The notes under the pieces were generated by a model. That model made no database searches. It saw only the letters and a list, made by a program, of their open reading frames with translations, and was not told where the DNA came from. The position numbers and the translations under genes are program-made. A stretch of DNA of 64,000 nt from Harmothoe impar (taxonomy: Eukaryota > Annelida > Polychaeta > Phyllodocida > Polynoidae). Where the stretch lies: assembly GCA_947462335.1 (NCBI GenBank), contig OX381707.1, forward strand, positions 83,786,610 through 83,850,609. The letters run 5' to 3'. Position 1 is the stretch's first letter. Each line of letters begins with the position of its first letter. Below are positions 9,270-42,713 of this stretch, in pieces.

Positions 9270-9675
9270 GTAGTATAGTATGTATCGGAACGGGACTATA
9301 GTTAACTACTGTTTATTACTCAATCGACATGCAGCCAATCAGAGGCCGCCATTTGGTCACGTGACCCGTTGCCATGGTAACGTGACCTACTTAGGGCTCT
9401 CAGCCAATCAGAAGCCAGCATTCTGGGTGACCTACTGACCTACTTAGAAGCTCTCAGCCAATCAGAGGCCGGCATTCTGGTAACCATGGTAACGTGACCT
9501 ACTTACGTCACGTGACCTACTTAGGCTCAGCCAATCAGAAGCTGGCATTCTGGTAACTAGGGTAACGTGACCTACTTAGGGTTTGTTTGTAAACAACACC
9601 ACGTGGCTCTCTTGTTTGTAAACAAACAAACAAAAAAGTTATGTAACTTATATATAGAAATAAAAACACAACAAG
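9270..9675 (+). repeat. Element 1 left TIR
   Basis: About 406 bp, mirrored at 18549-18968. It contains repeated blocks of CCAATCAGA, gtCACGTGac E-boxes, acctacttag, X-box-like palindromes (9368-9381 and 9480-9493), and an inner gtttgtaaacaacaccacgtggctctc module. Confidence 0.9.
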
Positions 9676-9736
9676 ATAATTTCTTTTTTTTTCATTTTAT
9701 TCTTTATTTTCATTTCAATCAAAAAAACACACAAGT

Positions 9737-10036
9737 TTATGCTTTTTTAGCTCGCTTCTTCGATTTGCAACAACCCAACAGGCCGCAAAGTCTCACGCCG
9801 CCGTCACTCGCACCACCACACCCCGGACGACTTCTCTCCAATAGACATTGCACGACTTTGGATAAATCCAACACCATTTCGGCAAGGCAGAGAATCTTTG
9901 CCTCCATGAAACGGCCGCCATCGCAACAACCCGTCACAACAGCATCATCGATAGCTTCTGACTCACTGTCCGGTCGCTCAGCTTTGGGATTTTGCTCATG
10001 CGCATGACGCACTTCTTGGGGTTTCTTGTTCGACAT
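9737..10036 (-). CDS. Small hypothetical protein at the left end of element 1
   Basis: A 99-residue frame overlaps the 3' end of the protease gene by about 100 bp and stops just inside the left TIR. The product has an acidic N-terminal half, several cysteines (TGCCDGG, LLGCCKSKK) and a basic tail. I recognise no family. It sits in the gap between protease and TIR on the same strand as all the core genes, which supports coding, but the overlap and lack of homology leave this open. Confidence 0.35.
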   Translation of the reverse strand: MSNKKPQEVRHAHEQNPKAERPDSESEAIDDAVVTGCCDGGRFMEAKILCLAEMVLDLSKVVQCLLERSRPGCGGASDGGVRLCGLLGCCKSKKRAKKA

Positions 10037-10386
10037 GCTTCAATTAGGAAATGAACGCAATGAGGTCCACAGGTGTCAGCAGAAGTGTCTTGTAGTTGAA
10101 CGCGGTTTCTTTGCCACTTGAACGGAGCAGAGCGTTCCACGAAAGACAAGAACTCCGCACTCAGCGGCGGTAAGCCGAAGGAATCAAAGTAGTACACTTC
10201 ACCCGTGCTCGACACGTAAAACGCCACCCAATGCTGACCTGGTAAATGTTGCGGATCTGTGTTGCTCACGAAACAAGTGTCTTTGATAGGGTGCTTCGGA
10301 ATAGTGTCACAAGAGAAAACACCCAGGAAACGATGTTTTGTGTGAACGTTTTCCTTCAACACTCTGCTTATTTCAAGCGTGTTCAT
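9934..10386 (-). CDS. Adenain-like maturation cysteine protease
   Basis: Likely the virion maturation protease of the Polinton morphogenesis set. The frame is open further upstream, but the ATG at 10386 gives a 150-residue protein of the expected domain start and begins 30 bp after the capsid gene stop; the longer version would overlap the capsid gene. Numbered from this start, the catalytic set is visible: His52 (GQHW), Asp68 (YYFDSFG), Gln99 and Cys106 (Q then seven residues to C in DTCGPHC). The spacing is that of adenovirus-type proteases (C5 family). It is shorter than adenovirus proteases but keeps all four active-site residues, so it may be functional. Confidence 0.85.
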   Translation of the reverse strand: MNTLEISRVLKENVHTKHRFLGVFSCDTIPKHPIKDTCFVSNTDPQHLPGQHWVAFYVSSTGEVYYFDSFGLPPLSAEFLSFVERSAPFKWQRNRVQLQDTSADTCGPHCVHFLIEACRTRNPKKCVMRMSKIPKLSDRTVSQKLSMMLL

Positions 10387-10415
10387 ACGATACGCTAAGT
10401 ACCGCTGTCTTGTCT

Positions 10416-39672: not shown

Positions 39673-39676
39673 GTGT

Positions 39677-41746
39677 AGCCTCCAAATGTTTTTTCTCAAG
39701 CACTAAAATCGCGACTTTGAATAAGCGCCAGCGCCTGGCTTGTATATAGCTCCTGAGTAAGAACTTCACCGAATTGAAAAGCCCTCCCTCAGAGCTCTTA
39801 ATCGCGACAGTACGGTACAAATCTGATGTCAACCCGCGCCAAAAACAAAAAAGGTGTTCCGGTCACACGTACCTACGACGAGCGACCTTCAGCTATCACC
39901 ACGTGAAGAGTGGGAAATAAATTTTGTACGGCAAGAAAACTGAAAACTGATAACGATTCCATTAGATAAGTATTTGGTTCCAATCTATGGCGAGATATTT
40001 CCACCAAAGCGATTGATTTATATGTCTGTAAGGTTCAGCTCTCCAACACTCTCCAATGTCCGCCGGTGCACGACGGTCGCCGCCCATCATTAGTCACAAC
40101 TAAACTTCTGCTGGAGAGTGAAAGTTACGTTGAGTCTTGAGGTGCGCAGAGATACTATCTGCCGCAGCCTGATTTTAGTTCCACGCTATTTAGATAACCG
40201 CCCCATTTAAAATCTCTCTCTCGATCCTAGTAAAGGAAAAAAAAAAGGCTAGAGTTTATCATGGACGCGTCTCAGTTTCAGTCAAGCCGTAAAGTGAAGA
40301 ACCAGAGCTTGTACATATTCCCACGTGGTGAGGGGTGACCCCGCGGGGCGTTCAGTTAGTACTGAGTCTATACTCAAGGTCAAGTTCCACTCTCTAAACA
40401 GAGCTTTAGCGACTCCGTCATATAGACTAGACCGCGCGCGCGATTTTTTTTTGCTGAAGCAGCTAATCGATGGAAGAGTAGAGAACAGGTGCTCGACCAA
40501 AAATCTGCTTCAGAGGCTTGTTATCAGGTATTAACAGTTAAATCAAAATATTTCAAAACATCCAGAAAAGCAGAATAACATGTCCTACGGGCTACAGCCG
40601 GGCACTGACGAGCAGACGGCGCTGACGTCATTTCAATCAGGTCACAGGGCTCTTTAGACACCTTTTCTGTAAGACCCGTCTCATACCTTAGTATATAATA
40701 CCGTAAACACCGGTGATTAGTATATGATCACATTGGAGTCGCGGATCCACGAAGAGGCTGAATAAGCCTCGCGCGGACCCGCCACTTGAAAATGTGACAT
40801 AATCTTACCATGCGCTTTGTTTTGTTTTTGTTTCTATTTACAACAGCAAACATTTCAAACAACCTATTGTTTTTTTAAAATGATGAAAAATCAGCCCAAA
40901 AAAAAAGTAAACATTTTAGAGCTAAATTTGTGGAGGATAGCCGGACATGCTGATGTCACTAGACCCCTAAATTCGATATGGTGACATGGGCATTTTCTTA
41001 AAATTCGATACGACGACACGGGCACGGACATCTAAGTGACATGGGACATGTGGCATTTCTTGAGTCCCACATGTGCCATGGACCATAGTGACATGAGGAA
41101 AAAAAAAAAAAAATGTTCAAAGAGTGCATCAGAAAAGTGCCATTTCAAGCCTAAACATTTCGCCAAATTTTTTTTTCTCTTGGATGGTACTCGGTTTTGC
41201 AGTGTCTGGGTCCTTAAAAATGTACCAGAATGCTCAAATTCGGGTTCTAAATATTTTCAAAAAACGTTTTCTCCCTTAGTGACGTGTGACATGGACATTT
41301 CTTAAATTCGACATACGGCTGCATGGGGAGGACCCACCCGTCAAGGGCCCCATGATGACTCATACCCGCCGCGTTCAAACTAGCGTGGTGGTTATAGGTA
41401 GACCTTCTTTCAGTATCCACGTGACCAGATCCATCGCCGTCTCTTGAGCAACAGTAACCGAGGTAACTAGGGTTATTGTTATCCGGTCCGTAAGACGACA
41501 GTCTAAGACGGTGTGTAGTCGCGTTTTGCTCTCCCTAATACTCTAATTCAAGTCGAGTTACCGCTAACCCCTACAAAAAGAGGGTCATTTGTGTAATTCA
41601 AAAGGCGTTCCTTTGTTAGCAATGAGGGGGTCGTTCTATTCATTGATTTTTTTTTTTTTTTTTTTTTTTTTTTTTTTTTTTGTTTACAACAACAAGTCAA
41701 AGTACAGTCAATCAACCGAGATCCTTTCTACTCCGTGGGGGTGTAG
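39677..41746. repeat. 2.07 kb tandem duplication, copy 2
   Basis: Direct neighbour of copy 1, joined by gtgt at 39673-39676 where ggtgtag is itself repeated. The poly-T run is one base shorter or longer than in copy 1. Confidence 0.93.
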
Positions 41747-42160
41747 AAGGATCTCCCCCCTGAGGTTACAAAGTCACCTCTTTATTTAAAGGGTTACAGG
41801 TCGCAAAGTCGCTTTCGCTTTCGCTTACAAGTCACAAAGTCGCATGAAATATTCAAGTCAAAAAGTCAAATTCATCAACTATCAGCACAGTCGTTTGAAA
41901 GGCATCAAGTCACCGAAAAACTCCTCTACAGTCACCTCCGACTCGCCTCCTCCCTACCCCCCTAAAGGGGGGTAGAGAGGAAGCGATTCCCTAGAGATCA
42001 GATAATTTTTTTTTTTTTCTCCCGAGCAGACCCTAAAAGCCCCCCCTCCCCCCCAAGTGCCCGCCCACCCCATAAATAGTGCCCCCCTCCCCCCCTCCCC
42101 TCCCCATGCATCTTAAAGTGCCCCCCTCCCCCCCTCCCCTCCTCCCCTCGCCCCTTATAG
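41747..42160. other. C-rich spacer before the right TIR of element 2
   Basis: Contains cgctttcgctttcgctt-like runs, acaagtca(c/a)aaagtc repeats and C-rich blocks (gtgcccccctccccccctcc) at 42040-42150. No gene. Confidence 0.6.
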
Positions 42161-42713
42161 AAGCCTCCCATTAGCTAGTCCAAGTCATGTGACCAAAAGG
42201 GAGGCGTAGTCTGTCTATTGTCTATATTATGCAAATGAGGGAGGGGGTCAGGTCACGTGACCAAGGGGGTGTGGCCTATTTTCTAAATAAAGAGCGCTTC
42301 CGGTCACGTGACCAAGGGGTGTGGTCCTATTATGCAAATGAAAGAGTCACGTGATCCATGATTATGCAAATGAGGGAGTCACCTGACCAAATGGAAGCCA
42401 CTGATTGGCTGGTGATCAAAGGGGCGTAGTCTACTATGCAAATGAGGGGGTCACGTGATCAAGGGGGCGTGGTCTATTATGCAAATGAGGGGGTCACGTG
42501 GGGGTCACGTGACCAAATGGTGGCCCCTGATTGGCTGGTGATCAAGGGGGTGTGGCCTATTACGTAATTATGCAAATGAGGGGCGTGGCCTATTACGTAA
42601 TTATGCAAATGAGGGGGTCACGTGACCAAATGGAGGCCTCTGATTGGCTGCATGTCGATTGAGTAATAAACAGTACTTAACTATAGTCCCGTTCCGATAC
42701 ATACTATACTACT
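42160..42713 (-). repeat. Element 2 right TIR
   Basis: Inverted match of the left TIR with more units: seven atATGCAAATga octamers between 42225 and 42612, E-boxes and CTGATTGGCTgg boxes. It differs from the left TIR in unit number and order, so the arrays expand and contract. Confidence 0.88.

What the first reader, a model, noticed from the sequence alone, without database searches (positions are those of the whole stretch)
9270..42713. Two Polinton elements with identical ends: a virion-gene carrier without polymerase and a gutted relative
Seen: both insertions begin and end with the same 20+ bp, both have perfect 6 bp duplications (CCTAGG, CACCAT) and both share the inner gtttgtaaacaacaccacgtgg module. 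Element 1 has ATPase, penton, capsid and protease, but a broken integrase and no PolB. Element 2 has none of these. Known: autonomous Polintons encode PolB and integrase. Inference: neither copy can move alone. Element 1 may supply capsids and element 2 may be a satellite mobilised and perhaps packaged by relatives, a virus-satellite arrangement inside an animal genome.
Basis: partly seen in the sequence, partly recalled or inferred. Interest (0 to 1): 0.9.

Follow-up and report, generated by a model that had tools for sequence, protein, structure and literature searches.

The report
Polinton virus split into separate elements
An animal genome carries thousands of copies of a virus-like mobile element whose capsid genes, DNA polymerase and other sequence sit on separate pieces of about 10,000 bases with the same ends, which looks like a multi-part version of a virus known so far as a single piece.

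Summary
E1 (9269-18968) and E2 (30923-42713) are complete insertions with perfect 6-bp duplications and near-identical outer 98 bp. E1 has capsid, protease and ATPase genes, a truncated integrase and no PolB. The interpretation needs recasting. The same ends (14,094 matches, so roughly 7,000 elements in 1.51 Gb) flank at least three recurrent classes. Class A (10.3-10.5 kb; hexon marker 1,607 matches) carries virion genes and, in sibling E4, an uninterrupted integrase. Class B (9.4-9.7 kb; PolB marker 2,576) carries PolB, a PC4-like and a Death-domain protein; no virion gene was found in the copy read (E3). Class C (mostly 9.6-9.8 kb) includes E2. Of 40 paired elements examined on contig 1, 10 show the exact hexon marker, 9 PolB, 5 class C, 16 none and 0 two classes; none was shown to be a full-length Polinton. 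Virion genes of PolB-less E1 and E4 are under purifying selection (dN/dS 0.38). The five elements read share a central noncoding module. Best reading: a Polinton/adintovirus with a split genome, mobilised by complementation. Expression, packaging and movement are not shown.

The parts
9263..9268 (.). E1 left target-site duplication CCTAGG
9269..9675 (+). E1 left terminal inverted repeat; outer 98 bp shared with the other elements; inner part with RFX/FOX-like and CCAAT motifs (motif names recalled)
9934..10386 (-). adenain-like maturation protease (150 aa from ATG)
10416..11723 (-). hexon / double-jelly-roll major capsid protein, 435 aa
11803..12225 (-). basic 140-aa protein, pX/pVI-like by recalled resemblance only
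12240..13358 (-). penton-like 372-aa ORF (label by position, not confirmed by any library)
13355..13906 (-). integrase, rve domain; C-terminal part incl. third catalytic residue and chromodomain missing (613 bp of sibling E4 absent, a T tract in their place)
13891..15054 (-). 387-aa ORF, no family match
15051..15383 (-). 110-aa ORF with hydrophobic C-terminus
15389..16108 (-). packaging ATPase (Adeno_IVa2-like, 239 aa)
16331..16981 (-). 216-aa orphan; three relatives (93%, 82%, 82%) in public assemblies
17375..17610 (+). central noncoding module shared by E1-E5 (E1 copy); contains a TATA-like block
17829..18461 (+). Ala-rich 210-aa ORF
18549..18968 (-). E1 right terminal inverted repeat
18969..18974 (.). 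E1 right target-site duplication CCTAGG
30917..30922 (.). E2 left target-site duplication CACCAT
30923..31413 (+). E2 left terminal repeat and adjoining repeats; inner octamer ATTTGCAT / CACGTG arrays typical of class C
31469..32890 (-). E2 Ala-rich 473-aa ORF; its start region lies in the class C marker (32760-32910)
33100..33350 (-). central noncoding module, E2 copy (the most diverged of the five)
37602..41746 (.). 2071-bp tandem duplication (99.95%) that makes E2 longer than its class
42320..42713 (-). E2 right terminal repeat; outer 98 bp identical to both ends of E3 and E4
42714..42719 (.). E2 right target-site duplication CACCAT

Best explanation
E1 and E2 are integrated copies of two different segments of one Polinton/adintovirus-type virus or element whose genome is split. 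Class A (E1, E4) encodes the particle (hexon, protease, packaging ATPase and others) and the integrase. Class B (E3) encodes PolB, a PC4-like protein and a two-Death-domain protein. Class C (E2 and its class) carries an Ala-rich ORF and little else recognisable. They share the terminal 98 bp, taken to be the site read by integrase and polymerase, and a central ~200-bp module, taken to be a promoter or a packaging/replication signal. When A and B are active in one cell, PolB would replicate every molecule with these ends, class A capsids would package ~9-10.5-kb molecules, and the integrase would insert them. Shown: split gene content, near-identical ends, 6-bp duplications, marker copy numbers, purifying selection on the PolB-less class. 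Inferred: co-replication, packaging, integration in trans, and whether segments travel in one particle or several.
For: Five complete elements in the 364 kb read (window plus 300 kb of flank), each with a perfect 6-bp duplication: E1, E4 virion type; E3 PolB type; E2, E5 neither. Outer 98 bp identical in E2R, E3L, E3R, E4L, E4R; agreement drops after about column 98, while the shared central module is only 58-81% alike between types. The module was found in 5 of 5 elements and in 0 of 282,472 bp outside them (the six loci holding element pieces were left out of the outside set). E1 vs E4 virion-class genes: 71 synonymous changes per 1,527 sites, 92 nonsynonymous per 5,121, dN/dS 0.38, Fisher p 4e-9. 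Genome: 14,094 ends; hexon 1,607, integrase C-part 1,638, PolB 2,576, Death 2,418 matches; 0 for the reversed control patterns. On contig 1, of 40 paired elements: 10 hexon (10.34-10.54 kb), 9 PolB (9.39-9.75 kb), 5 class C marker, 0 with two classes, 16 with none. Class C end motif inside 0 of the 10 hexon and 0 of the 9 PolB elements (against 145, counted by eye). One PolB element (9,539 bp) lies between ends that leave 10,535 bp with hexon: a nested insertion of one unit into another.
Against: The genome lists show exact matches only (first 100 places), so an unlisted marker is not proof of absence; 16 of 40 paired elements have no gene marker, 11 of them also no class C end motif. An autonomous full-length form elsewhere or in another host is not excluded: 40 elements from about 5.2 Mb of contig 1 and 5 near the window are a small part of ~7,000, and marker matches may sit in decayed copies. 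Four of the six exact hexon-PolB neighbours within 25 kb were not resolved. No expression, virion or episome data. Integrase sits on A and PolB on B, so trans action is assumed. PC4 and Chromo matches are below Pfam cut-offs. Similarity of the E1 and E2 Ala-rich ORFs barely exceeds composition (1 of 200 shuffles reached it) and codon positions show no clear coding signature. The central module of E2 is only 58-66% like the others. IMG/VR gave no free relative.
Confidence: 0.72

Rival explanations
1. All classes are non-autonomous derivatives of an ordinary monopartite Polinton/adintovirus (rare in this genome, or exogenous) which supplies everything in trans; A, B and C are three kinds of satellite.
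For: Non-autonomous Polintons are catalogued in repeat databases (recalled; only lists papers that hold both words). Drosophila-associated adintoviruses are reported as single contigs of 13-14.5 kb; for the first of them PolB, integrase and capsid genes are named (PMC8363768, passages). I examined only a small part of the genome.
Against: 0 of 40 paired elements carry both exact markers, and the two longer pairs (13.2, 15.9 kb) have the class C end motif at one or both ends. A and B together hold a Polinton core set, each at more than 1,600 marker matches, and A is under purifying selection, which a satellite using helper capsids would not need for its capsid genes.
Confidence: 0.2
2. Class B is a capsid-less self-replicating transposon (like a linear plasmid or transpoviron) and class A a separate virus that hijacks its polymerase; they share ends by recombination without forming one genome.
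For: Loss of the structural module is held to have produced transpovirons and linear plasmids from related elements (PMC11071308, passages).
Against: The E4 integrase matched only E4 and E1 (tblastn of the window and 30 loci, E up to 10), so the B copy read has no recognisable integrase of this kind; dependence would be mutual, which comes close to a split genome.
Confidence: 0.05
3. Chance cluster of independently deleted dead copies; the classes are old deletion products that no longer move.
For: E1 integrase is broken and E2 has a large internal duplication; 16 of the first 100 listed exact ends on contig 1 were not paired with a neighbour.
Against: Tight length classes and markers at fixed distances from the ends (hexon 2119-2158, PolB 1163-1279 bp), uninterrupted genes in E3 and E4, dN/dS 0.38; the 40 class C markers scored are 100% identical (the tool scores its best candidates, so this is not a random sample).
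Confidence: 0.03

Closest known systems
Polinton/Maverick elements
   Same: 6-bp duplications, terminal inverted repeats starting 5'-AG (recalled), rve integrase with chromodomain-like end, PolB of the viral/organellar family, adenain-like protease, packaging ATPase, double-jelly-roll capsid
   Different: PolB and virion genes sit on different elements; elements are ~9-10.5 kb with shared 98-bp ends
Adintoviruses (animal Polinton-like viruses)
   Same: hexon relatives found by sequence, some in animal records; PolB, integrase and virion gene set overall
   Different: reported Drosophila-associated examples are single contigs of 13-14.5 kb, the first holding PolB, integrase and capsid genes together (PMC8363768, passages)
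Meldviruses lacking recognisable PolB and integrase
   Same: adeno-class virion genes without PolB (PMC11071296, passages)
   Different: here a PolB is found on a partner with identical ends, and class A has an integrase
Segmented bidna-like and bipartite densoviruses (Vesanto virus, AdSDV)
   Same: works like: genome shared among several DNA molecules; Vesanto virus possibly up to twelve segments (PMC8363768, passages), bipartite AdSDV (PMC10267136, start of abstract)
   Different: those are ssDNA viruses of the parvovirus/bidnavirus kind; this is Polinton-type and integrated
Transpoviron-virophage pairs
   Same: capsid-less polymerase-bearing element next to a capsid-bearing one (transpovirons: PMC11071308, passages)
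   Different: no giant virus known here; shared ends; animal host

Membership tests
Polinton/Maverick | 6-bp target-site duplication | tested here: met
   5 of 5 elements read
Polinton/Maverick | terminal inverted repeats of hundreds of bp | tested here: met
   about 390-740 bp in all five
Polinton/Maverick | rve integrase with chromodomain | tested here: inconclusive
   E4: rve 50.2 bits (cut-off 32.6), Chromo 19.0 bits (below cut-off 25.1); E1 truncated
Polinton/Maverick | PolB in the same element | tested here: not met
   PolB only in E3 (PF03175 30.3 bits, cut-off 25.8); tblastn of it against the window and all 30 loci gave only chance hits elsewhere
Polinton/Maverick | capsid, protease and ATPase genes | tested here: met
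   in E1 and E4 of the five elements read
Adintovirus | hexon recognisable by BLASTp to adintovirus hexons | tested here: inconclusive
   42 relatives incl. Lytechinus and Patella entries; not compared with the adintovirus reference hexons
Adintovirus | PolB with N-terminal OTU-like domain | tested here: inconclusive
   no OTU family among the Pfam matches; not examined further
Adintovirus | both modules on one genome | tested here: not met
   0 of 40 pairs carry both exact markers, 0 of the five elements read
Multipartite virus | genes divided over molecules with shared termini | tested here: met
Multipartite virus | segments packaged and transmitted separately | not testable with these tools
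   needs particles or episomal DNA

The most novel reading that the evidence does not exclude
A Polinton-type linear dsDNA virus of an animal with a genuinely multipartite genome: at least a virion segment, a polymerase segment and a third Ala-rich segment, each ~9-10.5 kb, kept at similar length by a packaging limit, each with its own array of host transcription-factor motifs in its ends, and together amplified to about 7,000 insertions (~4.5% of the genome).
Probability: 0.6. Interest if true: 0.95.

Novelty: new variant of a known kind. Interest (0 to 1): 0.92.

Why it matters
Polintons are often placed near the root of many eukaryotic DNA viruses and are described as single self-synthesising units. 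A split genome, with capsid and polymerase on separate integrated pieces sharing ends, would show that multipartitism can arise in linear dsDNA viruses, could explain capsid-bearing elements without a recognisable polymerase reported by others (passages), and gives a host genome in which segment ratios, end homogenisation and satellite origin can be counted in thousands of copies.

Tried and rejected
A single full-length autonomous helper: none shown among 40 paired elements on contig 1 nor among the five elements near the window; the 13.2- and 15.9-kb pairs carry the class C end motif at the right end and at both ends respectively. I set aside two adjacent +/- pairs of 40.9 and 94.1 kb as mispairings. 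In the 40.9-kb one a hexon and a PolB match lie about 31 kb apart near opposite ends, so I read it as two elements with one end each missing from the exact list.

E2 as a deleted E1: rejected, since they share only the outer 98 bp, the 22-bp module, the central module and a repetitive Ala-rich stretch. Homology of the E1 and E2 Ala-rich ORFs beyond composition: not established; E1 against E4 the Ala-rich ORF gives dN/dS 0.42 on 11 and 13 changes, too few to lean on. A conserved RNA structure in the central module: not supported (covariation term +0.32). The 216-aa orphan as a hidden replicase: AlphaFold model useless (pLDDT 33). Free viral relatives in IMG/VR: none for hexon, hexon alignment, PolB or an end fragment. 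A first whole-genome search with the 100-bp end as DNA gave nothing, probably because that search skips very common words; the pattern search later gave 14,094. PHROGs, NCBIfam, Rfam and PDB sequence searches added little.
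Full report
WHAT WAS CHECKED. The two insertions are real. E1 spans 9269-18968 (9,700 bp) between copies of CCTAGG, E2 spans 30923-42713 (11,791 bp) between copies of CACCAT. Their ends are long inverted repeats (E1 93% over 421 columns, E2 87% over 406). E1 and E2 share 94-99% of the outer 98-99 bp and little beyond, except an inner 22-bp module found 5 times in the window and 0 times in 100 shuffles.

E1 GENES. Reading leftward on the minus strand from about 17 kb: a 216-aa orphan, packaging ATPase, a 110-aa and a 387-aa ORF, integrase, a penton-like ORF, a basic 140-aa ORF, hexon and protease; on the plus strand a 210-aa Ala-rich ORF. 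The hexon has no Pfam match but its AlphaFold model (29-sequence alignment, pLDDT 86) matches double-jelly-roll capsids (PBCV-1, E 1.4e-16; also Sputnik and mavirus; viral library). 42 hexon relatives were found in public protein collections, the closest 93% identical to E1 and, over the N-terminal 270 residues, 95% to E4. The integrase ORF of E1 stops in a lysine run before the third catalytic residue of its relatives. Against sibling E4, 613 bp are missing there and a T tract stands in their place.

WHAT LIES NEARBY. Reading 300 kb around the window gave three more complete elements with the same ends. E3 (contig C4 83736187-83745682, duplication GAGGCA, 9,496 bp): a 1,375-aa PolB (PF03175 30.3 bits, cut-off 25.8), a 526-aa protein ending in a PC4-like domain (21.9 bits, below cut-off 25), a 249-aa protein with two Death-domain stretches (32.6 bits, cut-off 22.6), and no match to the E1 virion proteins. 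E4 (83928935-83939445, CATGAC, 10,511 bp): E1's genes open (hexon read in the two parts that the loci hold), 378-aa integrase with rve and a sub-threshold chromodomain match, no PolB. E5 (83975170-83984329, TATGTG, 9,160 bp): no ORF above 105 aa in the ATG-start list, 740-bp end repeats at 99.3%.

ENDS AND CENTRE. In the outer 98 bp, E2 right, E3 left, E3 right, E4 left and E4 right are identical; E1 left differs from them by 2, E2 left by 1, E1 right by 6, E5 by 12-13. Around column 98 agreement falls from about 8-10 to 5-6 of 10 ends. The inner end arrays differ by class: E1/E4 carry RFX- and forkhead-like motifs, E2 the octamer (5 and 7 copies in the longer end stretches, 0.02 expected), E3 GGAAGTGAC with CRE-like sites, E5 E2F-like sites; all carry CACGTG (motif names and the likeness to adenovirus origins are recalled, not tested). 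A ~200-bp central module is present in 5 of 5 elements and in 0 of 282,472 bp outside them; between classes it is 58-81% alike (E2 the most diverged), within class A 96%. So classes that have drifted apart in the middle keep near-identical ends, which fits long-term use of one replication and integration machinery or end exchange during co-replication (inference).

SELECTION. Ten gene stretches of E1 against E4 (hexon in two parts, integrase residues 1-170 only, stop codons dropped): 71 synonymous per 1,527 sites, 92 nonsynonymous per 5,121, pooled dN/dS 0.38; per gene 0.24-0.72, undefined for the 110-aa ORF (0 synonymous, 3 nonsynonymous changes); Fisher p 4e-9. The PolB-less class therefore evolved under constraint, not as debris.

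WHOLE GENOME. The 37-base end pattern (up to 3 mismatches) matches 7,041 + 7,053 times, control 0 and 0. Marker matches, same tolerance: hexon 1,607, integrase C-part 1,638, PolB 2,576, Death 2,418. With two ends each this is about 7,000 elements; at the mean 9.76 kb of 38 pairs under 12 kb it is about 69 Mb or 4.5% of the genome, an estimate. The first 100 exact ends on contig 1 (about 5.2 Mb) give 42 adjacent plus/minus pairs and 16 unpaired ends; I dropped two pairs (40.9 and 94.1 kb) as mispairings. Of the other 40: 10 hexon (9 of them with integrase), lengths 10,344-10,537; 9 PolB (5 of them with Death), lengths 9,391-9,747; 5 with the class C marker (9,589-9,822 and one 15,926); 16 with no gene marker; 0 with markers of two classes. 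In that stretch 3 of 13 listed hexon, 5 of 14 integrase, 5 of 14 PolB and 1 of 6 Death matches lie outside the 40 pairs. The class C end motif appears in all 5 class C elements, in 5 of the 16 unmarked ones, inside 0 of 10 hexon and 0 of 9 PolB elements (against 145, counted by eye). The lists show exact matches only, so absence is weaker than presence; one 10,460-bp element without a listed hexon is probably class A.

NESTING. One PolB element of 9,539 bp lies within a span of 20,074 bp between outer ends, leaving 10,535 bp with hexon: read as a class A element invaded by a class B element. Another PolB element (9,747 bp) is flanked by class C end motifs about 18.8 kb apart, probably the same kind of event; not followed up. 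On contig 1 up to 92.5 Mb, 6 of the 70 x 100 exact hexon-PolB combinations lie within 25 kb; the nearest is the nested case, one more has its hexon in a listed pair that does not reach the PolB, and four were not resolved.

CLASS C AND E5. A 151-bp marker at the start of the E2 ORF has 1,008 first-look candidates; 40 were scored and all are 100% identical. E2 less one period of its 2,075-bp tandem repeat would be 9,716 bp, the length of its class. E5 sequence likewise has 40 scored full-length copies at 99-100% of 3,243 candidates; whether those lie in such elements was not tested. Class C has little recognisable coding capacity yet about the same length as A and B, which suggests a packaging length limit (inference).

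MECHANISM. Most likely a split-genome Polinton/adintovirus: A gives particles, packaging ATPase and integrase; B gives polymerase and host-control proteins; C is carried along as a third segment or satellite. Weak points: no expression or particle data, no proof of trans action, and a full-length helper elsewhere is not excluded.

LITERATURE. Searches (listings of the best papers only) showed no paper described there as a split Polinton; most subscription papers are not held, and the adintovirus founding paper was not held. Passages read: PMC11071296, PMC11071308, PMC8097293, PMC10120064, PMC8363768. PMC10267136: start of abstract only, in the listing.

CHANGES AFTER CHECKING. The confidence of the capsid-less-transposon rival was lowered from 0.12 to 0.05 so that the alternatives sum to one; no other odds changed.

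Noticed in passing
window 37602-41746: 2071-bp tandem duplication at 99.95% inside E2, recent or an assembly effect
   Followed up: partly
window 34939-36188: 396-bp unit repeated 3.2 times inside E2, origin unknown
   Followed up: no
window 29597-29913: 139-bp near-perfect hairpin arms (98%) 39 bp apart, outside the elements
   Followed up: no
window 26042-26540 and 28784-29312: CTGTCT-type low-complexity arrays outside the elements
   Followed up: no
window 145-1665: ORF with SET (45.8 bits) and MYND (24.1 bits) domains, probably a host SMYD-like gene
   Followed up: no
L005:4298-8425: E3 PolB contains a Vsr-endonuclease-like stretch at residues 867-942 (phrog_13076 29.2 bits; Vsr structures E 0.004)
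   Followed up: no
L005:655-1404: two-Death-domain protein on the polymerase class, a candidate modulator of host cell death; 2,418 marker matches in the genome
   Followed up: partly
window 9269-9367 and 18870-18968: E1 right outer end differs from E1 left (4 of 98) by more than E1 left differs from the ends of E2-E4 (1-2 of 98), hinting at end exchange between elements
   Followed up: partly
L028:4561-10000 and L029:1-3720: E5 looks mosaic: central module nearest to E3, a stretch near its right end 92% like part of the E1 Ala-rich ORF, other pieces like E2
   Followed up: partly
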